The position numbers and the translations under genes were made by a program. Shown here one piece after another: positions 37,757-50,017 of a stretch of DNA of 64,000 bases. Each line of letters opens with the position of its first letter. Positions within the stretch are counted from its first letter, which is position 1. The stretch covers positions 1 to 64,000 of the forward strand of contig RECQ01000047.1 in NCBI GenBank assembly GCA_007693965.1. The letters run 5' to 3'. This stretch comes from Phycisphaeraceae bacterium (GTDB lineage: Bacteria; Planctomycetota; Phycisphaerae; Phycisphaerales; UBA1924). A model generated the notes under the pieces. That model made no database searches, was not told the origin of the DNA, and saw nothing but the letters and a program-made list of their open reading frames with translations.

Positions 37757-38308
37757 TCAGATCCCCACACGCTCCTCTGCGCTGCGGATCGCATCGATGC
37801 ACATCTGGATGTGCGCTGTCTCGTCCACACCGAGCTCCTGCATTCCCCGCGCGATGTCGGCGCGGCTCACGGCGGCGGCGAAGGCCTTGTCCTTCAGCTT
37901 TTTCTTCACGCTCTTGGGCGCCAGATCTTCGATGCCGTTGGGGCGCACCTTGGCGCAGGCGACGATAAAACCGGCCAGTTCATCCACGGCGAAGAGCGAT
38001 TTCGCCATGGGCGTCTCGCGCGGCACGCCGCTGTAGTCCGCGTGGCCCAGGATCGCTGTGCGGATTTCTTCATCGACCCCGATCGATTCGAGATGGCGAA
38101 CGCCCACGAAGGGGTGTTCCTCTTTCGAGGGGTGCTTCTCGTAATCGAAGTCGTGCAGCAGGCCGCAGACGATCCAGCGTTCGTGATCGTCGGGCGCGAG
38201 CTTGTCGGCGCAGGCGCCCATGCACGCGGCGACGGCCTCCATGTGGCCGCGCAGCGCGGGGCTGGGGGTCCACTCCTGCATCAGCGAACGGGCTTCGTCG
38301 ATGGTCAT
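37757..38308 (-). CDS. HD-domain hydrolase
   Basis: This 183-residue protein has an HD phosphohydrolase fold. ALRGHMEAVAACMGACADKL supplies the first histidine (about residue 22), WIVCGLLHDFDYEKHP the HD pair, and ILGHADYSGVPR the next metal-binding histidine. The aspartate of the last helix is in FAVDELAGFIVACAKVRP. The substrate could be a nucleotide or second messenger; small solitary HD proteins of this type lack a defined role. It converges with the XRE gene, 31 bases apart, and the Do protease gene lies 95 bases downstream on the same strand. Confidence 0.85.
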   Translation of the reverse strand: MTIDEARSLMQEWTPSPALRGHMEAVAACMGACADKLAPDDHERWIVCGLLHDFDYEKHPSKEEHPFVGVRHLESIGVDEEIRTAILGHADYSGVPRETPMAKSLFAVDELAGFIVACAKVRPNGIEDLAPKSVKKKLKDKAFAAAVSRADIARGMQELGVDETAHIQMCIDAIRSAEERVGI

Positions 38309-38403: not shown

Positions 38404-39930
38404 TCACCGTCCGACGCGGACGAACAGGTAGCGTCGGACGCCGTCGGCGAGCACCTGCAGGCGCACGCCGCGGGTGAGGTCGTACGCATCGAGGGCCTCG
38501 CGAAACTCGTTCGCATCGGTGATGCGCCGCGCGCCGACTTCAATCAGGAGATGGCCGGGGCGGAGTCCGGCGCGGGCGGCGACGGAGCCCGGCGTGACCT
38601 CCGTGATGAAGACGCCGCCGATGTCCTCGCTGACGCCCATCCGCGCCGCGGCCTCGGGCGTGAGCGTCTCCACCACGACGCCGAGTTCCTCGATCGCAGC
38701 GGTGTCGCCATCGCGCATTGCTTGAGCGGCGCGGTCATCCAGCCGGCCGATTTCCGCTTGGAGCGTTGTGCGTGATCCGTCGCGGAAGACATGGATCTCA
38801 ACGCTGGAGCCGGGGCTTGTCGAGGCGACGTAGTTGCGGAACTCGTTCATGTCGCGCACCGGGCGGCCGTTGAAGCGCGTCACGATGTCTCCGGGCTGCA
38901 GACCGGCCCGAGCGGCGGGCGAATTTTCGGCGACATCGCCGATCAGGGCGCCGCCGCCGGTGTGCCCGAAGCTCTCGGCGATCTCGGGCGTGAGCGGCTG
39001 GATCTGCACGCCGAGGAAGCCGCGTTCGACATCGCCGGTGTCGATCAGGCTGTCGGCGACGTGGCGGGCCATGTTGATGGGGATGGCGAAGCCGATGCCG
39101 AGGGCGCCGCCGGTGCGGGTGGTGATCGCGGTGTTGATGCCGACGACCTGTCCCTCGAGGTTCACCAGCGCGCCGCCGGAGTTGCCGGGATTGATGGCGG
39201 CGTCGGTCTGAATGAAGTATTCAAAGTCGGCCAGGCCGAGCTGCGAGCGACCCTTGGCGCTGACGATGCCTGCGGTCACGGTCTGCTCGAAGCCGAAGGG
39301 ATTGCCGATGGCGAGCACCCAGTCGCCGACTTCCAGCGCATCGGAATCGCCGAGGCGCGCGGGCGCGAGGCCGCTGGCGTCGATGCGCAGGACGGCGAGA
39401 TCGGTCTGCGGATCGGTTCCGATGACGGTGGCGGAGAAGGTGCGTCGGTCGTGCAGCGTGACCTCGATCTCATCGGCGCCCTGCACGACGTGGTTGTTGG
39501 TGAGCACGTGGCCGGAATCATCAATGATGACGCCGCTGGCGACACCGCTGCGCTCACGCCGCTGCGGCTGCTGAGGCTCTTGGCGCTGCTGATCGAAGTG
39601 CTGCTCGCCGAAGAAGCGCTCGAACATTTCATCGAAGGGGCTGCGGCCGGGTCCGAAGGGGGATGGAGGCGGCGCGAGCCGCTGACGGGGCGGCATCTGT
39701 TCGATGCGGACCGTGCGGATGTTCACCACCGAGTGCGCCGACGCCCGCGACACCTCGCGGAACGCCTCGGAGAGCGAACGGGCGTGGTGGAGCGCTTCCT
39801 CGGATATTTCGGGGGCGCGCTCCTGCGACCTTGCGATTGGTGTGTGCAACGTCAGGGCGCCAAGCGCGATCGCTGCGATCAGCGTCGGGGCGGCGGCCAG
39901 TGAGAAGCCACGAATTCGTGTGCGGGTCAT
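38404..39930 (-). CDS. Do/DegQ-type periplasmic serine protease
   Basis: This 508-residue trypsin-like protease has two PDZ domains. A signal sequence covers the first 35 residues. The triad is His147 (LTNNHVVQG), Asp177 (DPQTDLAVLR) and Ser251 (NPGNSGGALV). PDZ1 is about residues 290-380 (GFLGVQIQPLTPEIAESFG) and PDZ2 about 400-500 (VFITEVTPGSVAARAGLRPG). It degrades misfolded envelope proteins, and its PDZ domains sense unfolded tails. The start at 39930 has AAGGAGA 8 bases upstream. It lies just downstream of the two-partner secretion locus on the same strand, although a 326-base gap separates them, so co-regulation is possible, not shown. Confidence 0.93.
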   Translation of the reverse strand: MTRTRIRGFSLAAAPTLIAAIALGALTLHTPIARSQERAPEISEEALHHARSLSEAFREVSRASAHSVVNIRTVRIEQMPPRQRLAPPPSPFGPGRSPFDEMFERFFGEQHFDQQRQEPQQPQRRERSGVASGVIIDDSGHVLTNNHVVQGADEIEVTLHDRRTFSATVIGTDPQTDLAVLRIDASGLAPARLGDSDALEVGDWVLAIGNPFGFEQTVTAGIVSAKGRSQLGLADFEYFIQTDAAINPGNSGGALVNLEGQVVGINTAITTRTGGALGIGFAIPINMARHVADSLIDTGDVERGFLGVQIQPLTPEIAESFGHTGGGALIGDVAENSPAARAGLQPGDIVTRFNGRPVRDMNEFRNYVASTSPGSSVEIHVFRDGSRTTLQAEIGRLDDRAAQAMRDGDTAAIEELGVVVETLTPEAAARMGVSEDIGGVFITEVTPGSVAARAGLRPGHLLIEVGARRITDANEFREALDAYDLTRGVRLQVLADGVRRYLFVRVGR

Positions 39931-40256
39931 GCGGTGTTCTCCTTGTAAGGAACAGGAAGAAGCAACGGTTGGGTTTCGACATTGCGCCAGGGCTCGTTCG
40001 TGCATGGCGCATCCAGACTGTCGGCGCCGGCGACGAACCGGCGGGGTCAATCCACGGGCGATATACAAGCGGCGCGCCAGTCGGGATGCGTTTCGGGAGT
40101 GGCGCCGGCCGGCGTCACGCGCCGCACATGCAGGCGCAGGGATGGCGCGGCTGCCACTCTGGCAGCCGATCGCGCAGACAGTTCAGGTGATCGCCGGGGG
40201 CCGGGTGTTTCGGACCGGAGGCCGGGCGTTCCGGAAAGGCGCGCCGGCGTGGATCC
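39931..40256. other. Intergenic stretch between TpsA and the Do protease gene
   Basis: No gene is supported in these 326 bases. An 8-bp hairpin (CGGCTGCC-ACTCT-GGCAGCCG) lies at 40148-40168 and lacks a T-run on either strand. It should hold the promoter of the protease gene, but no clear -35/-10 pair was found. Confidence 0.45.
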
Positions 40257-43200
40257 TCACGTCCCCGCGCCGACGGGGGGCTCGGGCGCCGGGGGCGTCG
40301 CTTCGAGCACGCGGGTGAGCTGTTCGACGGTCAGGCCCTCGGCGCTGGCGACCACGCCCAGCAGCCGCGCCCGCGTCTGGCGGTACTCGCCCGGCGTCAG
40401 GCCGAGCCAGCGGAGCTCATCCAGCAGACGCTGCAGGTCGTTGACGTAGGCGTTGGCCGTTGCCAGGTCGTCCTGCTCGTGCAGCATTGTGCGGAAGCGC
40501 TGGGGATCGATTTCCGCGGCGTCGGTGAGCGAGAAATATGTCTCGCGGGCCTGTTCGATCGACGCGATCACGTCATCAACGCGTTCGTCCTCATCGCCGA
40601 AGATGCCGTTGTACGTGTTCACGACCCGCTGCACGATGCCGCGGTCGAAGCGGGATGCGACTGATGTCAGCTCGGCGTCGGTGAAGCCTTCCGGCGAAGC
40701 GGGCAGATCGGTGTAGAGAGCTCTGCGCGAGCCCGCGGCGTCCTGCGACTCACCCGGGCCCACGTTGCGGGCCGCGATGGCGATGCGCTGAAGGAGCTGC
40801 AGATCGAAGACCTCGGGAATCGTGGTGTCCTCGAACTCGGGCGTGATCGGCTCGGCCCCGGCGAGGTCGGGGGCCGGATCGAAATCATCGTCATCCGGCG
40901 GCGGCGTGGGCGCCATGGTGAGCTGGTCGAGCACCACATCATCAAACGTCAGGGTGTCTTCGGTGGTGAGCTCGGACTCAATCAATGTGAACTCGAAGGC
41001 CGCCAGCCGGGGCGTGGCCTCGCCGGTGACTGCGGATGCAAACGTCGGATCCGATCCGGTCGACACGCCGGCGAGCACGATCTCGCCATCGAGGTCGATG
41101 ACGCCGCCGGCGACGAAGTCCAGCCCCCGATCGGTCAGCGTCGAGCCATCGGATGTGAGCACCGAGCCCGGCAGGCGTCGGAGCAGATTGATGGTGGGCG
41201 CCACGACGAGCATGTCGCCGGTGGTTGTCAGGTCGCCGAGGAAGGCGGCCCGATCCGCAAAGACGCCCAAGTCGCCGAAGATGGTGAACTTCTCGTTCTG
41301 ACCCATGACGAAGTCGCGGACGAAGAAGTCGATCGAGCCGTCGCCGAAGATGGTGGCCTGGTTGGGAACCGGACGCGCTGCGCTGTCGCCGGCGGTGCTG
41401 AGGAAAAGATCGCGCAGGCGCTCGATGGCGCCCACATCGCCTTCGAAGACGATCAGGCCGCCGGGCGTGGTGGTGACCGCGAGATCGAAGCCGCCGTTCA
41501 CGCTGGAGGCGAAGCGGATCACGCCATCGTCGAGGCTGGTGAGGCTTGTGTGGTCATCGAGCGTCAGGGCGCCGCCGTAGGTCTGGTCGCCCATGGTGTA
41601 GACGCCACTCCCGGCGATGGTCGTCTCACCGTTCACGGTGAGAGAGGCGAGGGGCGTCCCCATCCCGACGAGACCTGCGAAGAGCGCATCGCCGTTGATC
41701 GACACATCGGAGGCGCCGTCAAGCGACTGGGAGAAGGTTATGAAATCGCCGGTGAAGTTGGTGGTTTCGCCGCCCAGGCTGACGCCTGCGCCGTAGAGCT
41801 GGGCGCCGGTGGTCTCGACGCCCGCGCCGTTGACGGCCGCAGCGCCGGTGATGGCGAGCGACGCCAGCGCGGCATCGGCGCCGACAGGACCGGAGAAGGT
41901 GGTGAGCCCGTCCGCATCGATTTCGAGACCGAAGCCGCCGTTGACTGGGCCGCCGAACGCGATGGCGCCGCCGGCCTCGAGGACGGCGTCGGCGCCGAGA
42001 TCGACACCGCCGTAGCTCTGGGCGCCGGTGGTGGTCACCGCGCCGCCGTTGAGAGCGGTCAGCCCGTCGACGTTCACACTGGCGGCGGCCACCGCGCCGT
42101 CGAAGATCGCTCCATCGCCGATATCGAGGTCACCGGTGAGAGTCACGCCCTGGAAGGCGCCGTCACCGGAGAGCGTGACATTCGAGCCGGTGAGCGCGCC
42201 GATGATGGTCAGGCTGTCGCCTGTAGCGCCGCCGTTGAAAGCGATGGCGTCGCCGGTGAGCGTGCGATCGCCGGTGAGCGTGGCGGCGCCGGCGTAGGTC
42301 TGGTTGCCTGTGGTGGTCACATCCTGGTTGATGAACGCGGGGCCAAGCACGAGCAGCGACGCGAGTGAGAGCTCGCCGTTGATGTTCGAGCCGGTCTGAC
42401 TGGCGAGCGTGAGGGCGCTGCCGGCGACTCGGTTCGGCGTCATCACCGAAACGGCGCCGTCGCTCGATTCGAGCCGGTAGCTCATGCCAGCGACCGAGCT
42501 GCCGAACTGAGTTGGCTGCGGGATGGCGGTGTTGGACAGCGAGGCGTCCTGAATGATGGAGAAGCTGTTCGGGCGTGTCGAGCCGAGGGCGGCGCCCCGG
42601 AAGATCGGCGCGTTGGTGATGGCGTTGACGCTCGCGGCGCCGAGGCCCGAGTTGTTCCCCGATCGAAGAGCGATCTGATTGGCGCCGAGATCGAGTCCGG
42701 GCGAGAGGAAGGCGAGCTGGCCGGCGCCTGTCATGCCCGCGTGCAGGCTGATGAAGTCCTGGGCATGGAGGAAGCCGTCGATGTTGATGTCGAGTCCGGC
42801 GCGGAGGTCGGCGAAGGAGGCGACAGTGAGCCCTTCCTCGACAGTGAGTGATTCGGAAGCGAACCCGTCGAAGCTCGCGACTGTCTGCGAGCTGAAGCCG
42901 CCGAAATTTCCGCCGAGCAGCAGAGAGCCGTCGGTGATGTTGACCACGAAGTTGGTCTCGACGGGGTTGAAGACGAACCCGCCCGGGCCGGCGCCGATCG
43001 CCATGCTCTCCGCCTGCGTGAGGAAGATCGTCTGGCCCGCCGGGACTCCGATGCGTCCAAACTGGATAGAGCCCGTGGTCGCTTCGAGCGTCAGGTCGCC
43101 TGCCGAGGCGGTGAGCGTCATGCCGAACAAGTCAGGGCTGACATCAATGATGTCGCGTCCGGCGGTGAAATTCAGGAACGAGGCCGAGGCGTTCTTCGCC

Positions 43201-44711
43201 GTCACGCCTCCGATGTCGATGCCCATGATGATGTCGTTGAAGGCGAGCAGGGACAGGCCGCCGTTTACTTTTTCGATGTCGGTCGCGAGGTAAATGTCGC
43301 GTGTCGCTTCGAGGAAGACATCGCCCGCGAAGCCCTCGATGGCTGCTCGGGAGATGAAGAAGTCATCCATGCCGCCGTCGCCAGCGCCGACCGAACCGTC
43401 GCCGCTGATGTCGCCGTCGTTCATTCCTGGATCGTTGATGATAAAGATGTCGCGCGGGTCGAAGAGCGCGGTGGAGGCGTCGTATCCGAACTTCACATCG
43501 CCCTTGATCGAGCCGTGCGCGCCGAGGCGCTCGGTGGCGCTGATCTCGACGAAGCCGCCGTGTCCGCCCAGCGCGCCGCCGGAGATGTCGACCTGGGCGC
43601 CGCGGGCGAAGAGCGTGTCGCCCTCCCACGCGTGGACGAGCACTGTTCCGCCGTCGGCGTGGCCTCCGAGGCCAGCGGCGCTGACGACGCTGCCGTCCGT
43701 CAGCGTGGTGCGCAGCGAGCTGGTGATTTCGACCGAGCCTGCGGCGCCGCGCTCGGCGTCTGCGCTGGCGACGCCCGAGTGAACAATCTGCGGCGCCCGG
43801 ACGCTCACCGCGCCGGCCTGGCCTTCGGCCACGCTTGCGGAGAGCTCGCCCGAGTTGTGGATGGCGCCGTCGCGGGCCGTCAGGGCGACGGCGCCGCCGG
43901 AGGCGCTGATCGAGCCGGTGTTGCGCACGGCGAGCGAGTATGCGTCGCCGGCGCCGAGGGAGACGCGGCCGCCCGTCGCCTGCACCGAGCCGGTGTTCTC
44001 GACGGCGGGGGTGTCGGCGGCGCTGACGACGCGGCCGTCGCCGCGGCCCGGCTTCGCATCGGCGTTGAGCGTTTCGCCATCGATACGGACGAAGATCTGT
44101 CCGCCGCGCTCGCCGATGTAGATGTCGTTGCCGGAGAGCATGGTGACGACGCCGCGATCGGCGACGATGGCGCCGTGGTTGGCGACGCGCTGGCCGAGCA
44201 GGTGGATGGCGCCGCCCTGGATGTGGCCGTGGTTGATCACCTCGCCGGAGAGGCCGGTGAAGCGGTCGATGCCCCGGAGGAAATCGCGATCGGTGATGGC
44301 GCCGGCGGCGGCATGGATGCCGCCGACATCGACGAAGGCGTTGGCGCCGAAGATGACGCCCGCGGGATTGACAATGTAAACAAGGCCGTTGGCCTGCAGC
44401 ACGCCGTCGATGCGCGTAGGCGCAGCGCCGTTGATGCGGTTGAGCACGCGGGCGTCGGCGCTGGGCTGGATGAAGCGCACCGTCTGATCGCCGGTGATGT
44501 CGAAGCTCGAGTAGTTGATGATGGTGCGGTCGGCGGCGCGGATGATGGTGGTGTCGCCGTTGCGGATGAACTCGGCGCTGCCGCGCTGGACCCGCTCGCC
44601 GCGCGGACCGGCGAGGGCGATGGGCGCCGCCAGGCTGACAGCGCAGCCGGCGATGAGCGCAATGCGGGCGGCCTTGGAGAGAACATCATTTCTTCGGTTG
44701 TGCATGGCCAT
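40257..44711 (-). CDS. Two-partner secretion exoprotein (TpsA, filamentous-haemagglutinin type)
   Basis: This is a 1484-residue secreted protein. After a signal peptide (about residues 1-34) comes a TPS domain: EFIRNGDTTIIRAADRTIIN, then YIVNPAGVIFGANAFVDVGG, whose NPxGVIFG motif is the signature of haemagglutinin-type secretion domains. The central part is repetitive and should form a long beta-helix; imperfect repeats lie between about 41400 and 42320. The last 250 residues are acidic and helical, with a Pro/Asp linker (TPPPDDDDFDPAPDL). Its transporter, TpsB, is encoded 69 bases upstream. The start at 44711 is preceded by GGAGAAGAGTCTGAG; the third codon is also ATG. Its function could be adhesion or contact with other cells. 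Confidence 0.88.
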   Translation of the reverse strand: MAMHNRRNDVLSKAARIALIAGCAVSLAAPIALAGPRGERVQRGSAEFIRNGDTTIIRAADRTIINYSSFDITGDQTVRFIQPSADARVLNRINGAAPTRIDGVLQANGLVYIVNPAGVIFGANAFVDVGGIHAAAGAITDRDFLRGIDRFTGLSGEVINHGHIQGGAIHLLGQRVANHGAIVADRGVVTMLSGNDIYIGERGGQIFVRIDGETLNADAKPGRGDGRVVSAADTPAVENTGSVQATGGRVSLGAGDAYSLAVRNTGSISASGGAVALTARDGAIHNSGELSASVAEGQAGAVSVRAPQIVHSGVASADAERGAAGSVEITSSLRTTLTDGSVVSAAGLGGHADGGTVLVHAWEGDTLFARGAQVDISGGALGGHGGFVEISATERLGAHGSIKGDVKFGYDASTALFDPRDIFIINDPGMNDGDISGDGSVGAGDGGMDDFFISRAAIEGFAGDVFLEATRDIYLATDIEKVNGGLSLLAFNDIIMGIDIGGVTAKNASASFLNFTAGRDIIDVSPDLFGMTLTASAGDLTLEATTGSIQFGRIGVPAGQTIFLTQAESMAIGAGPGGFVFNPVETNFVVNITDGSLLLGGNFGGFSSQTVASFDGFASESLTVEEGLTVASFADLRAGLDINIDGFLHAQDFISLHAGMTGAGQLAFLSPGLDLGANQIALRSGNNSGLGAASVNAITNAPIFRGAALGSTRPNSFSIIQDASLSNTAIPQPTQFGSSVAGMSYRLESSDGAVSVMTPNRVAGSALTLASQTGSNINGELSLASLLVLGPAFINQDVTTTGNQTYAGAATLTGDRTLTGDAIAFNGGATGDSLTIIGALTGSNVTLSGDGAFQGVTLTGDLDIGDGAIFDGAVAAASVNVDGLTALNGGAVTTTGAQSYGGVDLGADAVLEAGGAIAFGGPVNGGFGLEIDADGLTTFSGPVGADAALASLAITGAAAVNGAGVETTGAQLYGAGVSLGGETTNFTGDFITFSQSLDGASDVSINGDALFAGLVGMGTPLASLTVNGETTIAGSGVYTMGDQTYGGALTLDDHTSLTSLDDGVIRFASSVNGGFDLAVTTTPGGLIVFEGDVGAIERLRDLFLSTAGDSAARPVPNQATIFGDGSIDFFVRDFVMGQNEKFTIFGDLGVFADRAAFLGDLTTTGDMLVVAPTINLLRRLPGSVLTSDGSTLTDRGLDFVAGGVIDLDGEIVLAGVSTGSDPTFASAVTGEATPRLAAFEFTLIESELTTEDTLTFDDVVLDQLTMAPTPPPDDDDFDPAPDLAGAEPITPEFEDTTIPEVFDLQLLQRIAIAARNVGPGESQDAAGSRRALYTDLPASPEGFTDAELTSVASRFDRGIVQRVVNTYNGIFGDEDERVDDVIASIEQARETYFSLTDAAEIDPQRFRTMLHEQDDLATANAYVNDLQRLLDELRWLGLTPGEYRQTRARLLGVVASAEGLTVEQLTRVLEATPPAPEPPVGAGT
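41400..42320 (-). repeat. Imperfect tandem repeats within the TpsA passenger
   Basis: A repeat unit of roughly 70-80 residues recurs about four times. Each has a TTGxQxYxG start (for example VTTTGNQTYAG, VTTTGAQSYGG, VETTGAQLYGA), then strands ending in a Gly-rich VGxxxxLxxL element. The pattern fits rungs of a beta-helix, probably duplicated within the gene. Confidence 0.6.
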
Positions 44712-44780
44712 CTCAGACTCTTCTCCGCGCGCCGGGCGGGCGACCGACGCCCGCGAATACGCGCTTATGATCCCTGTCGG

Positions 44781-46751
44781 TCAGTAAACAAGCGTGATGA
44801 CGAAGTGGACCCTGTTGTCTCCCGCATCGACCCTTCTGCGCCCCGATCCGTCGTCCAGATCCTTCAGTGCGAAGCCCCAGTCCACACGCGCGCTCAGGTG
44901 GCGGCTGATCGAAAGTTCGACGCCGACGCCGGCGCTGACGAGCGTCTGGTTCGCTTCGAACGATAGCCGGTCATTGTCGGTGGTGCGGGCGAAATCGACG
45001 AATCCGCGCAGGAAGAGATCCCAGTCGGTGGGGCCGTACTGGTATTGCGGCGCGAAACGGAAGGGACGTCCGAAAAAGGCGCCCGGCTGCGGGTCCGGCG
45101 AGAGCGCGCGGGGGATGTGGTAGCGATATTCGGCGCTTGCGATGAAAACATTATCGCCCGCGGCGATCGCCTCGGGATACCCGCGGACGGTGTAGAGGCC
45201 GCCGGCGACCTGCTGGAAGTTCGGCGCCAGCCGGTTGCCGAAGGCGAACTGGCCGCGGGCCTGGAAGGCCAACTCGTGCGCCAGGGAGCCCTCCTCGTCG
45301 GCGCTGCGGAAGAACGGGTCGAGGTAGAAGCTGTGCGACGCGTCGTAGAGGAGCGCGACCCAGTTGTTGTCGGCGTCGAAACGTCCGAGGCGGTCGATGT
45401 CCTGCGAGTCCGTGCCGGCGATGCCGGAGAGGTTGGTCTCGAGGAAGGCCGAGGCGCGCGTGGAGCGGTTCTCGCGGAGCTGCTCAAGCCGGAGGCCGGC
45501 GTAGGGGATCACGAAGTCCTCGCGGCCACGCTGACCGATGAACCGGTCGTTCACGCTCACCTGCTGCCAGCGGGCGCCGCCCACCAGGTCGATGAACAGG
45601 TCGCGGTTCTGCACGATGTTGGCAATCAGCTCGGCGCTGGCGCTCCAGCCGCGGCCCTTGAACTCGGCGTCCACAACGCCGACGTCCGTCGCGGTGTACT
45701 CATTCCAGGAGCCGTAGGCCCGCCAGCGCCAGCGCTCGGAGTCGGGCAGGGGCCGCTCGTAGGAGACGGTGACGGCGTGAAGCTCATCGAAGTTGGAGGT
45801 GATGTAATCGGCGAAGAAGATGTCGTCATTGCCCGTGAGCTGGTTGTGGACGAAGCCGAAGCGCTGCCGCAGCCGGTCGGTTGAGCGCGTGCCGGTGTTG
45901 GCGAGCTGGGCATAGAGGAACCAGGGGCGGTTCTCGGTCACGAGGTAGTCCACGGAGACAGCGCCGAATTCGTCGCCGGTTGCGGCCACTGCGACGTCGA
46001 CGCGCCGGCCCGGATGGCGATTGAGTCGGTAGACGAAGTCATCAATCCTGTCGCGTCGAAGCAGGTCCGTGCGGCCTTCCCTGACCTCGCCCGTCTCCGG
46101 GTCGCGGGCAGCGACCGGCGACCTGTCAAGGATGCGCCGATGCGCCGGGTTGTTGATGCGATCGTCCTCAGGCAGGTGATCGCCCATGCCCACGGTGCGC
46201 ACATCGTTGACGACGCCTGTGGTGACCAGGAGTGTGAGCTCCGTCCGGTCGGCGGGGCGCCTGTCCACGACCCGCCCGTCAATGACGGCGAAGTCCTGCG
46301 GATCGGGCTCGACATAGATGCCGATGAAGCCCAACGTCTGCAGCCGTTGCACCGCCGAGGGCGCGATCAGCGCCAGCGCGGAGTCGAAGAACCAGTGGCT
46401 TTCCATCTCGGGCAGGTCTGCGAGCCGCAGCCGCGTCGGTTCGTAGCCCTCGCGTGGGGCGATGAAGCCTTCTTCGGTCTCCTGGAGCACGACGATCGTA
46501 TCGAGCAGCGCCGCCTGGTCCGGATGATCCGGGTTGCGGATGGTGTATCGGAAATCGATGTCCGTGATGCGATGGCGTCCGCCGTCCGCTTCGTCCGGCT
46601 CGGGCAGCGCGGGCGGCGCTTCGACTTGCTGATCTGCGGCGGGCGCGATGTCCGTGTTCTGGGCCTGGCGGGCGTGGGCGGGCGCTCCGGGCGCCAGCAG
46701 CGAGAGAACGAGGAGCGCGAGAAGCGTCGCCGTGAAGGTCCGTGCATGCAT
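44781..46751 (-). CDS. Two-partner secretion transporter (TpsB, ShlB/FhaC family)
   Basis: This 656-residue outer-membrane transporter has a signal peptide (MHARTFTATLLALLVLSLLA), then periplasmic POTRA-like domains, then a 16-strand barrel typical of the Omp85/TpsB superfamily. The barrel contains ENRPWFLYAQLANTGTRSTD, GGLYTVRGYPEAIAAGDNVF (the VRGY/F motif of the conserved lid loop) and ends in a tyrosine (HFVITLVY). The insert near residues 190-250 makes it somewhat longer than usual FhaC. It exports TpsA, encoded directly downstream. The start at 46751 follows GAGG at about 10 bases. The upstream gap to a divergent small lipoprotein gene holds the likely promoter. Confidence 0.88.
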   Translation of the reverse strand: MHARTFTATLLALLVLSLLAPGAPAHARQAQNTDIAPAADQQVEAPPALPEPDEADGGRHRITDIDFRYTIRNPDHPDQAALLDTIVVLQETEEGFIAPREGYEPTRLRLADLPEMESHWFFDSALALIAPSAVQRLQTLGFIGIYVEPDPQDFAVIDGRVVDRRPADRTELTLLVTTGVVNDVRTVGMGDHLPEDDRINNPAHRRILDRSPVAARDPETGEVREGRTDLLRRDRIDDFVYRLNRHPGRRVDVAVAATGDEFGAVSVDYLVTENRPWFLYAQLANTGTRSTDRLRQRFGFVHNQLTGNDDIFFADYITSNFDELHAVTVSYERPLPDSERWRWRAYGSWNEYTATDVGVVDAEFKGRGWSASAELIANIVQNRDLFIDLVGGARWQQVSVNDRFIGQRGREDFVIPYAGLRLEQLRENRSTRASAFLETNLSGIAGTDSQDIDRLGRFDADNNWVALLYDASHSFYLDPFFRSADEEGSLAHELAFQARGQFAFGNRLAPNFQQVAGGLYTVRGYPEAIAAGDNVFIASAEYRYHIPRALSPDPQPGAFFGRPFRFAPQYQYGPTDWDLFLRGFVDFARTTDNDRLSFEANQTLVSAGVGVELSISRHLSARVDWGFALKDLDDGSGRRRVDAGDNRVHFVITLVY

Positions 46752-47157
46752 GCGTCGATGGCCTCGGAATGTGGAGCGAATCAGTTCTCGGGCGCCTGCG
46801 CGCAACGGCCTCGACGACGTCGGGTCGTTGATCCGTCCGAGCGGCGCTTGCACTGATTCGTCCGATGTCTCGTTCATGACCCCTCGGCTTGGGAGAGATG
46901 ACTCCTGCCTGTCCCGGCCTCCCTGCCGACCGCCACCAGTAAATCAGATCACCACGCGGCTGGCAAGCGAATTCAGGCCCGAAAAGTCTTTCGCCACAGA
47001 CACTTCCGGCCGCCGCGATCAATAACGTCGTGCGGACCTCGCCGAAGCGCAAGAGCTGCGCCGGAGTGGGGTATTTGCGGATTTTTCCTTTGGCACGGAC
47101 CGAAAACCCGGCGCCGCGCTTCAGTCGCCTGACACGCGGGTCGATGCCAGTGTCGTT
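46752..47157. other. Divergent regulatory region upstream of TpsB
   Basis: This 406-base gap separates the divergent tpsB and lipoprotein genes. In-frame extensions of TpsB run into it but add no conserved residues. I see no RNA gene, and no promoter pair good enough to name. Confidence 0.4.
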
Positions 47158-47711: not shown

Positions 47712-47835
47712 GTAAGCGTTCGGCGATGACTTGCCAGGGAGTCGCCGACGCCACAACCAGTCGCCCAGAGTTTCGGCCACCAGACGGCACGTTGTCGTTG
47801 CGCCGATCCATGCACAGGGCGCGGAGGAGTCTGAG

Positions 47836-48537
47836 ATGAACCGATCTGTTACGGCGGTTCGACTGCGGTGTTGCGCACGGTCTGCGGTCATGATCGCCGC
47901 CTGCGTCGTGGGATTGGGCAGCGCGGGCGATGTCCGCGCCGCCATGCTCTTTGATCCCGGGTTTTTCACCGCGCTCGATACTGAAGATTTCACTCTGATC
48001 ACGTTTGACGATCGCTCTCCTGCGCTCGGCATCGGATTCAGTGAAGTGATTCCGGCCGGCGCTTATTCCGATCTTGGCGTCGCGTTCACCGCGATGCCCG
48101 GCGATCCGCAGGTACGATGGGTGCGCGACGGCAGCCCCGATTTCACCGCGGTGCGGAGCATGCTCGGGCTCGGCGACATCTCGATCCCCGGCGCCCTCGT
48201 CGATGAATTTGAGATCGTCTTCTCGACGCCTGTCCTCGCATTCGGGATGTGGGCTATCCACAACAACGGTTTCGAGACGCTGCCGCGCTTCGAGGCATTC
48301 GACAGCGAAGGCGAATCGCTCGGCGAAGTCGTTCTGGGCGATGGCCCCGTGCAGACGCTCGGCGTCGCCGACTATGGGTTCATGGGCATCGTCGCCGATC
48401 GCGAGATCGCCCGGGTCAGCGTGTCCAAGGACGCGGCCATCTTCGACAATCTGTACTTCTCTCCGATCCCGGGACCCGGCCCCGCAGCCGCGCTGCTCAT
48501 CGGCGCCGGCGCCCTCGGGCTTCGAAGGCGTCGCTGA
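47836..48537 (+). CDS. Exported protein with PEP-CTERM-like anchor
   Basis: This is a protein of about 233 residues. A signal peptide (AVMIAACVVGLGSAGDVRAA) is followed by a beta-rich region (DTEDFTLITFDDRSPALG, then VAFTAMPGDPQVRWVRDG) and a C-terminal sorting tail with a PIPGPGPAAALLIGAGALGL segment and four terminal residues of type RRRR. A protein with this layout is exported and probably anchored by an exosortase-type system. The start is preceded by GCGGAGGAGTCTGAG, almost the same as before tpsA. The leader is long (about 118 bases from the promoter at 47684-47711). Confidence 0.8.
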   Translation: MNRSVTAVRLRCCARSAVMIAACVVGLGSAGDVRAAMLFDPGFFTALDTEDFTLITFDDRSPALGIGFSEVIPAGAYSDLGVAFTAMPGDPQVRWVRDGSPDFTAVRSMLGLGDISIPGALVDEFEIVFSTPVLAFGMWAIHNNGFETLPRFEAFDSEGESLGEVVLGDGPVQTLGVADYGFMGIVADREIARVSVSKDAAIFDNLYFSPIPGPGPAAALLIGAGALGLRRRR

Positions 48538-48638: not shown

Positions 48639-49913
48639 ATGTCGGATGTGGGCAGAAACATTTCACGCTCAGCGTTTCTGGCGTGGCAGGAAGCGTCGCG
48701 CCGGCTTGATGATGTTCAGATCGTCTTCATCGTCGGACCGCCCAAGACCGGGACGACATGGCTCGCCCGCACAATTGGCGCTCATCCGCAGGTTGCGCTG
48801 TGCATGGAGAGCCAGGCGTGTCATGGGTTGTTCCCCCGATTGAAAGACGCATTCCGGGAACATGCTGCACAGCGCGCCGAATTCACAGGGTATCCGGAGA
48901 GCGAGCCCACATCTCTCGACAGAGCAATGTTGCAATGCCAGGTATTGGACAGGATTCTGCTCCGCACCATCAACCTCGCTGAGAAAAGGGATGGGAAGCG
49001 TGTGAGCACGGTTTTGGAGAAGACGCCGTTTCATGCGAAATCAACCAGGTTCCTGGCTGGTCTCTATCCTGAAGCGAAGTTCATCTGCTGTGTGCGAGAT
49101 CCCCGCGATGGCGCCGTCAGCGGGTGGAGCCACTACCGACAAGGTGGTCAGATGAAGCAGAGCACCATCGAGGAATGGGCTCTGCATTACGTGCGCGAGA
49201 TGTGGGCGCCGTGCCTGAAGTCGGCGCGCGCCACGGGCGCTGCGCTCGGTCCAGACGGCTTCATGGAAGTTCACTACGAGAACCACAAGCAGGACCCCGC
49301 CGGCGTGGTCCGCAGCGCGCTCGAATTCATCGGGATCGACGCTGGGGACGAACCGCTCGCAACATGCCTGCATGCCGGTGATTTCAGAACACTGTCCGGT
49401 GGACGATCGCCTGGGCAGGTAGCGTCCTGGTGGTCGTTCTACCGCAAGGGCGTGGTGGGCGACTGGCGGACCCATTTCAGCGAGGAATTCGGCGCCCACC
49501 TGCTTCAAGAGGCGGAGTCGGCGCTCGATGGCCGCACGAAGGAGCAGTGGTTGCGGACCTGTCTCTGGCGCCAGGCGGCCCGGCGCTGCGAGGCGATGGG
49601 GATGCGACGCGTGGCCCTCTACGGCGCTGGCGAACATACCGATGAACTGCTTGAATACGGTTGGCCTGGCGAGGGGCTCGACCTTGTCGCAATTCTGGAT
49701 GATCACCCGAGACAGGAGCAGATCCGCGGCGTGCGGGTGGTGCAACCCGATCAGATCGACAAGCCTGTTGACGGAATCGTCATTTCATCGGAAACGCACG
49801 AGCAGGCGCTGTCGGACGCCGCGATGCGATCCTTCGGAGGACTTGGAACGCCGATCGTCCGGATCTACTCGCCGGAACTGGAGCCGTCGCCGACGCCGCT
49901 CGGCGCCGCCTGA
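48639..49913 (+). CDS. Sulfotransferase with C-terminal nucleotide-fold domain
   Basis: This is a 424-residue protein. The N-terminal 300 residues form a PAPS-dependent sulfotransferase: VGPPKTGTTWLARTIGAHP (33-51) binds the 5'-phosphosulfate, and CVRDPRDGAVSGWSHY (151-166) the 3'-phosphate. A C-terminal domain of about 100 residues starts at RRVALYGAGEHTDELLE (324-340) and continues LDLVAILDDHPRQE, a Rossmann-like nucleotide- or sugar-nucleotide-binding fold of the kind found in PglD-like and surface-polysaccharide enzymes. The fusion suggests sulfation of a polysaccharide or lipid during envelope synthesis. No ribosome site is evident. The next feature is tRNA-Ala, on the other strand. Confidence 0.85.
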   Translation: MSDVGRNISRSAFLAWQEASRRLDDVQIVFIVGPPKTGTTWLARTIGAHPQVALCMESQACHGLFPRLKDAFREHAAQRAEFTGYPESEPTSLDRAMLQCQVLDRILLRTINLAEKRDGKRVSTVLEKTPFHAKSTRFLAGLYPEAKFICCVRDPRDGAVSGWSHYRQGGQMKQSTIEEWALHYVREMWAPCLKSARATGAALGPDGFMEVHYENHKQDPAGVVRSALEFIGIDAGDEPLATCLHAGDFRTLSGGRSPGQVASWWSFYRKGVVGDWRTHFSEEFGAHLLQEAESALDGRTKEQWLRTCLWRQAARRCEAMGMRRVALYGAGEHTDELLEYGWPGEGLDLVAILDDHPRQEQIRGVRVVQPDQIDKPVDGIVISSETHEQALSDAAMRSFGGLGTPIVRIYSPELEPSPTPLGAA

Positions 49914-49944
49914 ATGGCATCTGAGCTTGTGCAGATTCAGAAAG

Positions 49945-50017
49945 TGGAGCGGACCGGGATCGAACCGGCAACCCCTGGCTTGCAAAGCCAGTGCTCTCCC
50001 AATTGAGCTACCGCCCC
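49945..50017 (-). tRNA. tRNA-Ala(TGC)
   Basis: All arms can be drawn. The acceptor stem pairs GGGGCGG with CCGCTCC (one G-T pair), the anticodon arm is CTGGC-TTTGCAA-GCCAG with anticodon TGC, and the T-arm has GGTTCGATCC. The discriminator is A and CCA is not encoded. It reads GCA-family alanine codons. Confidence 0.95.

What the first reader, a model, noticed from the sequence alone, without database searches (positions are those of the whole stretch)
40257..46751. Complete two-partner secretion locus in a planctomycete-like chromosome
TpsB (VRGY motif, terminal Tyr) and TpsA (NPAGVIFG, repeat passenger) are encoded as an operon with a 69-base gap. Two-partner secretion is best known from proteobacteria. 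The TpsA C-terminus is acidic and helical without a known toxin fold.
Basis: partly seen in the sequence, partly recalled or inferred. Interest (0 to 1): 0.55.

Follow-up and report, generated by a model that had tools for sequence, protein, structure and literature searches.

The report
Planctomycete two-partner surface-protein export operon
This is a genuine two-gene system that exports a long fibre-like surface protein in a planctomycete; the pathway is known, but here it is an old, widespread planctomycete branch whose exported protein ends in an undescribed helical domain, and relatives often sit directly in front of a bacterial harpoon (type VI secretion) gene cluster.

Summary
Confirmed: tpsB (44781-46877, -) and tpsA (40257-44711, -), 69 bp apart, form a two-partner secretion operon. 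TpsB is a remote but real FhaC/ShlB relative: Pfam ShlB hit, modelled two POTRAs plus 16-stranded barrel, best Foldseek hits FhaC and CdiB. TpsA has a TPS domain matching the EtpA, FHA and HxuA structures.

"Unusual for the phylum" is not supported. TpsB homologues occur in 162 of 301 genomes of the order and form one Phycisphaerae clade, not a recent proteobacterial import.

Two things appear undescribed in the papers searched. (1) The acidic tail is a conserved, well-modelled all-helical domain at the end of 26 of 28 complete TpsAs; no known toxin family was found. I infer a folded retention (anchor) domain. (2) In relatives, tpsBA is followed directly by tssA-tssB-tssC: 38 of 48 strong VipB/TssC loci have the TpsA end about 2 kb upstream on the same strand, suggesting a tethered adhesin serving T6SS contact. 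The window's copy belongs to a stand-alone branch; its genome's T6SS lies on another contig.

Verdict: known pathway, new variant; the T6SS linkage is the interesting part. All functional statements are inference.

The parts
44781..46877 (-). tpsB, Omp85/TpsB-type outer-membrane transporter, 698 aa (alternative start 46751, directly before a signal peptide)
   Evidence: ORF; Pfam ShlB 36.9 bits, cut-off 22.7; model and Foldseek to FhaC/CdiB
46668..46751 (-). TpsB signal-peptide region (MHARTFTATLLALLVLSLLAPGAPAHAR)
   Evidence: read from the sequence; no predictor run
46218..46577 (-). POTRA 1 (beta-alpha-alpha-beta-beta with an insertion)
   Evidence: secondary structure of the AlphaFold2 model; no Pfam POTRA hit
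45933..46214 (-). POTRA 2
   Evidence: AlphaFold2 model
44784..45923 (-). 16-stranded beta-barrel ending in an aromatic residue
   Evidence: strand count on the model; C-terminus VITLVY
45177..45188 (-). VRGY motif (loop L6) within GGLYTVRGY
   Evidence: the same motif aligns to CdiB 6wil
40257..44711 (-). tpsA, secreted beta-helix protein, 1484 aa
   Evidence: ORF; Pfam TPS; EtpA structures
44607..44711 (-). TpsA N-terminal signal peptide region
   Evidence: read from the sequence; no predictor run
43878..44546 (-). TPS secretion domain with NPAGVIFG
   Evidence: PF05860 E 4.8e-24, 1.4e-25 in the genome search
41493..42311 (-). four-copy passenger repeat ([TM]GxQxY...)
40829..40919 (-). proline-rich acidic linker (8 Pro, 10 Asp/Glu, 0 Lys/Arg in 31 residues)
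40260..40826 (-). conserved all-helical C-terminal domain of phycisphaeral TpsA proteins
   Evidence: alignments A2, A3; AlphaFold2 pLDDT 89.8, pTM 0.84; profile match 40293-40895 E 7.7e-54

Best explanation
This is a type Vb (two-partner) secretion operon. TpsA reaches the periplasm through Sec, its TPS domain engages the POTRA domains of TpsB, and the chain is threaded N- to C-terminally through the TpsB barrel, folding outside into a long beta-helix that probably works as an adhesin (shown by homology and predicted fold, not by experiment). The conserved C-terminal helical domain, after a proline-rich acidic linker, most likely folds in the periplasm, cannot pass the barrel, and so holds TpsA on the cell surface (inferred). 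Threading and the anchor role are inferred by analogy with FhaB and HMW1/HxuA. In many relatives the same operon heads a T6SS cluster, where a tethered adhesin would bring target cells into firing range (inferred); the window's copy is a stand-alone branch used for adhesion without T6SS linkage.
For: TPS domain and EtpA/FHA/HxuA structures. ShlB hit, tblastn hits to proteins annotated ShlB/FhaC/HecB, fold hits FhaC/CdiB first. In 69 of 80 best genome-contig loci a TPS-domain ORF lies downstream of tpsB on the same strand, median gap 68 bp. The C-domain ends within 14 residues of the C-terminus in 26 of 28 complete TpsAs, whatever their length (592-2935 aa). TpsB and C-domain co-occur in 139 of 301 genomes, 23 TpsB only, 6 C-domain only (relatedness not corrected). 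Confident compact helical model. Retention of TpsA C-termini is established for FhaB and for HMW1/HxuA (passages of PMC8263021 and PMC5422565). 38 of 48 strong TssC loci lie behind this domain.
Against: No experiment. The C-domain could equally be an extracellular head. It has no cysteine pair, so it is not the known HMW1/HxuA lock. Two genomes carry it on a short secreted protein without a TPS domain (L145, L151), which an anchor role does not obviously predict. The window's own locus has no T6SS gene beside it. The passenger beyond about residue 430 has no structural match.
Confidence: 0.6

Rival explanations
1. The C-terminal helical domain is exported last and is an extracellular functional head (receptor or matrix binding), not an anchor.
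For: Terminal position; only 24% mean column identity although the fold seems kept; FhaB carries a functional C-terminal domain outside before its prodomain (PMC8263021 passages).
Against: A ligand-binding head would be expected to vary with niche, yet the domain accompanies TpsB in 139 of 162 TpsB genomes. The proline-rich acidic linker and compact fold suit a stopper.
Confidence: 0.28
2. CDI-like system: the C-terminal domain is a toxin delivered into neighbours.
For: C-terminal position; CdiA toxins occupy the same place (PMC5422565 passages).
Against: CdiA toxin tails are highly variable; here one domain family is kept across the order. No Pfam toxin, PT-VENN or pre-toxin match. No recurrent small downstream gene that could be immunity: the largest downstream families are T6SS genes.
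Confidence: 0.04
3. Recent horizontal import of a proteobacterial TPS operon.
For: TPS is best documented in proteobacteria (PMC4827864 and PMC3482391 passages); canonical ShlBs of other planctomycetes are interleaved with proteobacterial and cyanobacterial ones.
Against: Phycisphaerales TpsBs form one branch (SH-aLRT 99, 41 rows) with other Phycisphaerae as sister (94), apart from all proteobacterial and cyanobacterial rows (quick method, some long branches); 90 of 148 genera have it.
Confidence: 0.03
4. The DegP/HtrA protease encoded just downstream (38404-40068, -) is the dedicated processing protease of this TpsA, as DegP is for FhaB.
For: Same strand, next gene; DegP starts FhaB prodomain processing in Bordetella bronchiseptica (abstract and passages of PMC8263021).
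Against: Of the 40 fetched loci only the closest relative (L092) keeps degP and the HD gene there. DegP is a general envelope protease.
Confidence: 0.1

Closest known systems
FhaC/FhaB (filamentous haemagglutinin TPS)
   Same: tpsB-tpsA pair; two POTRAs and a 16-strand barrel with VRGY; TPS domain; region after the beta-helix preceded by a proline-rich stretch; retained C-terminus (proposed here, shown for FhaB)
   Different: Very divergent TpsB (no phmmer hit to FhaC from the single sequence; profile hit only E 0.3); C-terminal domain about 180 aa and unrelated by any search made; shared ancestry with the FhaB prodomain was not tested directly
CdiB/CdiA (CDI)
   Same: TpsB fold (Foldseek E 8.8e-22); large surface beta-helix
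   Different: No polymorphic toxin tail, no PT-VENN, no recurrent downstream immunity-like gene
HMW1/HxuA with C-terminal anchor
   Same: TPS domain resembles HxuA; C-terminal domain that may lock the protein in its TpsB
   Different: Known lock is a disulfide loop; here there are no cysteines in the last 189 residues
TasL (Vibrio adhesin-like lipoprotein expressed with T6SS2)
   Same: Idea: a large surface protein provides contact for T6SS killing (PMC9040878 title and passages)
   Different: Lipoprotein, not TPS; the present link is genomic only and is in relatives, not in the window

Membership tests
TpsB (FhaC/ShlB/CdiB family) | ShlB/FhaC/HecB sequence profile | tested here: met
   PF03865 36.9 bits against cut-off 22.7; 27.9 bits in the genome search
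TpsB (FhaC/ShlB/CdiB family) | Two POTRA domains | tested here: met
   AlphaFold2 model, two beta-alpha-alpha-beta-beta units, residues 101-315; no Pfam POTRA hit by sequence
TpsB (FhaC/ShlB/CdiB family) | 16-stranded Omp85 barrel with VRGY in L6 and terminal aromatic residue | tested here: met
   16 long strands in 319-697; motif and terminal Tyr
TpsB (FhaC/ShlB/CdiB family) | Closer to TpsB than to BamA/TamA | tested here: met
   Foldseek ranks FhaC/CdiB 1-4 (E 4e-23 to 6.5e-20) before BamA (2.5e-18). VIA-align puts FhaC first, but Z 28.6 to 25 is nearly tied with BamA/TamA. The genome's BamA-like Omp85 is a separate locus
TpsB (FhaC/ShlB/CdiB family) | N-terminal plug helix H1 | tested here: inconclusive
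   residues 62-84 have pLDDT under 50
TpsA (TPS exoprotein) | N-terminal TPS domain after a signal peptide | tested here: met
   PF05860 at residues 56-278; adhes_NPXG; signal peptide by eye
TpsA (TPS exoprotein) | Beta-helical passenger | tested here: inconclusive
   residues 14-430 align to EtpA, E 3.9e-23; repeats further on, not modelled
TPS system | tpsB and tpsA adjacent and co-oriented | tested here: met
   69 bp gap; 69 of 80 related loci have the pair on one strand
TPS system | TpsB-dependent export of TpsA | not testable with these tools
   needs an experiment
CDI (CdiBIA) | Polymorphic C-terminal toxin and downstream immunity gene | tested here: not met
   one conserved domain at the C-terminus; no recurrent small downstream gene; no toxin family
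HMW1/HxuA anchor | C-terminal disulfide loop | tested here: not met
   no Cys in the last 189 residues; the only Cys of TpsA is residue 23
T6SS-linked phycisphaeral TPS loci | tssA-tssB-tssC directly after tpsA | tested here: not met
   window tpsA is followed by degP; the genome's VipB lies on contig C41, tpsBA on C59. The feature is met in relatives
CdrA/LapG-type release | LapG-cleaved periplasmic C-terminal tail | not tested
   LapG was not searched in the genome

The most novel reading that the evidence does not exclude
In Phycisphaerales, two-partner secretion and type VI secretion are parts of one machine: a TpsA beta-helix, held in the envelope by a lineage-specific helical C-terminal domain, is co-transcribed with tssABC and acts as the tether or sensor that brings prey into T6SS range (possibly signalling through the anchored domain). 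Stand-alone copies such as the window's would be derived or duplicated adhesins.
Probability: 0.3. Interest if true: 0.75.

Novelty: new variant of a known kind. Interest (0 to 1): 0.5.

Why it matters
It shows that TPS is an old, common feature of a planctomycete order, with a divergent TpsB subfamily that standard profiles score weakly. It also names an undescribed TpsA C-terminal domain, which makes the open question of how TpsA proteins are retained or released testable in a new lineage. The tpsBA-tssABC operons in relatives suggest a concrete, testable link between a surface adhesin and a contact-dependent weapon.

Tried and rejected
DegP link: tested by synteny; only L092 among the 40 fetched loci keeps it, so I do not build on it. 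C-domain as a TssA-like or T6SS part: hhalign of A3 against TssA gave probability 0.2%. C-domain against solved structures: no Foldseek match with E up to 0.001; best VIA-align Z 5.8, which the tool says is uninformative; HMM search best E 0.0026 ('Win', 75 positions of a helical stretch, not followed); no Pfam family matched more than one of 38 members. So no fold assignment, and I do not claim a new fold.

Stand-alone C-domain proteins next to T6SS (G613:C27, G597:C59) turned out to be contig-edge truncations; only L145 and L151 hold a short secreted form. The frameshifted TpsAs L138 and L149 were considered as phase variation at the poly-proline tract; their DNA looks like collapsed or misjoined assembly, so this is rejected as unsafe. 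Self-BLAST of TpsA returned no repeat pairs at E 1e-3; the repeats rest on the motif count alone. Single-sequence phmmer of TpsB against PDB gave only unrelated hits (a designed ThreeFoil protein, E 4.9e-5 for the whole sequence but no stretch passing alone, and UV endonuclease).

Limits of counts: the test uses place lists copied; the listing is truncated, so 38 is a lower bound, and the 400-bit line was set after seeing the list. Over all 74 VipB rows the figure is 39. The Fisher value ignores relatedness. The tree used the quick method with several long branches; one partial row (L212) and one duplicate (L130) were left out, and L246 and L247 gave no TpsB ORF. The 80 loci are the best 80 of 320.
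Full report
Observation. The window holds two co-oriented genes on the minus strand. tpsB (44781-46877; probable start 46751, where an internal ATG begins a signal peptide) is followed after 69 bases by tpsA (40257-44711, 1484 aa). TpsA carries a Pfam TPS domain (E 4.8e-24, residues 56-278) and NCBIfam adhes_NPXG. Phmmer aligns residues 14-430 to the solved TPS exoproteins EtpA (E 3.9e-23), 2odl 'Adhesin' and the haem/haemopexin-binding protein HxuA (name HxuA recalled). TpsB matches ShlB over the curated cut-off. tblastn finds proteins annotated ShlB/FhaC/HecB in 9 of the 13 plasmid records with a match; the best, Variovorax at E 1e-10, carries no annotation. The genome has one locus of each family.

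TpsB is a real but divergent member. An alignment of 25 relatives (A1) still finds CdiB only at E 0.0021 and FhaC at 0.3 by profile, with the GG.Y.VRGY loop aligned. An AlphaFold2 model from the window sequence plus 48 search for related loci relatives has mean pLDDT 85.9 and pTM 0.80. Its secondary structure gives two beta-alpha-alpha-beta-beta units (residues 101-315) and 16 long barrel strands (319-697) (domain reading mine). Foldseek ranks FhaC and CdiB first (E 4.0e-23 to 6.5e-20), before BamA (2.5e-18) and TamA. VIA-align also puts FhaC first (Z 28.6, rmsd 6.9, 463 aligned), though BamA and TamA follow closely.

Distribution and origin. The TPS domain is in 36 of 392 sampled genomes of the phylum and ShlB in 41 of 392. 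In the order, TpsB homologues are in 162 of 301 genomes and 90 of 148 genera. A scan of named genomes found 320 relatives; the best 80 are nearly all titled Phycisphaerales, Phycisphaerae, Phycisphaeraceae or Planctomycetota MAGs. In a 71-row tree (quick method, BamA outgroup from the window's own genome) the Phycisphaerales TpsBs form one branch (SH-aLRT 99) with other Phycisphaerae as sister (94). Canonical ShlBs of other planctomycetes are interleaved with proteobacterial and cyanobacterial ones. So the system is old in this lineage. The window's TpsB sits in a six-row clade (100) with L092, L093, L094, L095 and L119.

Literature. I saw passages only. PMC4827864 lists TPS (1.B.20) under Proteobacteria and Chlorobi. 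PMC3482391 lists T5SS-delivered toxins in several phyla, without planctomycetes. PMC4793230 reports T5bSS in several phyla and names Planctomycetes only for T1SS. PMC2702493 marks no T5SS in Blastopirellula marina. Searches for TPS or haemagglutinin with planctomycetes or Phycisphaer- gave no paper whose listing describes such a system. The library lacks most subscription journals.

The C-terminal domain. With a profile of 33 tails, the last about 190 residues of TpsA match 145 of 301 genomes of the order. TpsB and the domain co-occur in 139, TpsB alone in 23, domain alone in 6. Four of those six turned out to be TpsA ORFs open at the edge of the fetched stretch (three at a contig end; L260, L262, L263, L264). 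Among the 80 named loci, 70 have a TPS-domain ORF, 69 of them downstream of tpsB on the same strand (median gap 68 bp). Of 28 TpsA ORFs that close within the locus, 26 carry the domain within 14 residues of the C-terminus, at lengths from 592 to 2935 aa. The two exceptions, L138 and L149, look like assembly collapse or misjoining at the poly-proline tract. The model is compact and all-helical (pLDDT 89.8, pTM 0.84). No Foldseek match reached E 0.001 and no Pfam family recurs among 38 tails. It is acidic in the window (net -14 over 189 residues) and has no cysteines there; a 31-residue linker with 8 Pro and 10 Asp/Glu precedes it.

Mechanism. Shown by homology: Sec-exported TpsA with a TPS domain, and a TpsB pore. 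Inferred: the tail folds in the periplasm and retains the fibre at the surface. FhaB's prodomain is retained in the periplasm (PMC8263021 passages) and HMW1/HxuA use a disulfide loop to lock the C-terminus in TpsB (PMC5422565 passages). The present domain has no sequence link to either that I found. A conserved tail, the absence of toxin families, and no recurrent small downstream gene argue against CDI. Against the anchor idea stands a short secreted protein in L145 and L151 that carries the domain without a TPS domain.

T6SS linkage in relatives. In 9 of 34 fetched loci with a TpsA hit, a conserved gene follows tpsA on the same strand, usually with two more; Pfam calls them TssA (ImpA_N), TssB (VipA) and TssC (VipB) (the Tss names are recalled). 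In L251 the cluster goes on with ImpE, a gp25-like TssE, TssF, TssG, a ClpV-like ATPase and a VgrG-like protein. Across 301 genomes of the order, VipB occurs in 51. Of 48 VipB loci above 400 bits (47 genomes), 38 (37 genomes) have the TpsA C-domain 1.9-2.7 kb upstream on the same strand; of the 26 weaker rows, 1 does. In 11 loci tpsA and tssA are separated by -4 to 81 bases, four of them overlapping by 4 bases. Where sheath genes lie about 12 kb off (G095, G432), tssA still adjoins tpsA. Of the ten unlinked strong loci, G504, G571 and G581 have TpsB on the same contig 10-14 kb upstream (places), G422 is divergent, G498 ends at contig edges, and G596, G506 and G509 show no link. Linked TpsBs are scattered over the tree. 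The window's clade shows no T6SS gene in the fetched stretches, and the window's genome has a VipB on contig C41 in a cluster with an IcmF-like protein, not near tpsBA. Searches for TPS together with T6SS clusters listed no paper on such a linkage; TasL in Vibrio is a functional analogue (PMC9040878 passages).

Verdict. The phylum-level surprise is not: the operon is common in Phycisphaerales. What is new, as far as these searches reach, is the lineage's C-terminal domain and the tpsBA-tssABC operon in relatives. The proposed functions of both remain inference.

Noticed in passing
related loci L096, L101, L105, L106, L111, L114, L118, L122, L144, L198 (L115: tssA only): tpsB-tpsA is followed directly by T6SS genes tssA-tssB-tssC; 38 of 48 strong VipB loci of the order lie about 2 kb behind a TpsA C-domain.
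   Followed up: yes
38404-40068 (-) and 37757-38308 (-): DegP/HtrA protease and an HD-domain protein follow tpsA on the same strand; the arrangement is kept only in the closest relative L092.
   Followed up: partly
47731-48537 (+): Protein with a weak, sub-cut-off PEP-CTERM-like tail, divergent from tpsB; homologues upstream of tpsB in L092, L093, L094 and L119.
   Followed up: partly
L145:11349-12269 and L151:11237-12100: Short protein with a signal-peptide-like start (by eye) that carries the TpsA C-terminal domain without a TPS domain, just after tpsB.
   Followed up: partly
L138:14150-14300, L149 near 14501: TpsA reading frame breaks at the poly-proline linker; looks like collapsed or misjoined assembly.
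   Followed up: partly
L139, L161, L174: MAG titles 'Leptolyngbya sp. PLA1', 'Acidimicrobiales bacterium' and 'Cyanobacteria bacterium' on contigs with phycisphaeral TpsB genes; probably misnamed MAGs.
   Followed up: no
L250 (G000:C41:26000-45900): The window's genome has a T6SS cluster with VipB and an IcmF-like protein on another contig.
   Followed up: partly
L226, L227, L229, L231: Cyanobacterial plasmid TpsB genes are followed by CHAT-domain genes.
   Followed up: no
49944-50017 (-): tRNA-Ala (TGC) downstream of a sulfotransferase gene at 48639-49913.
   Followed up: no
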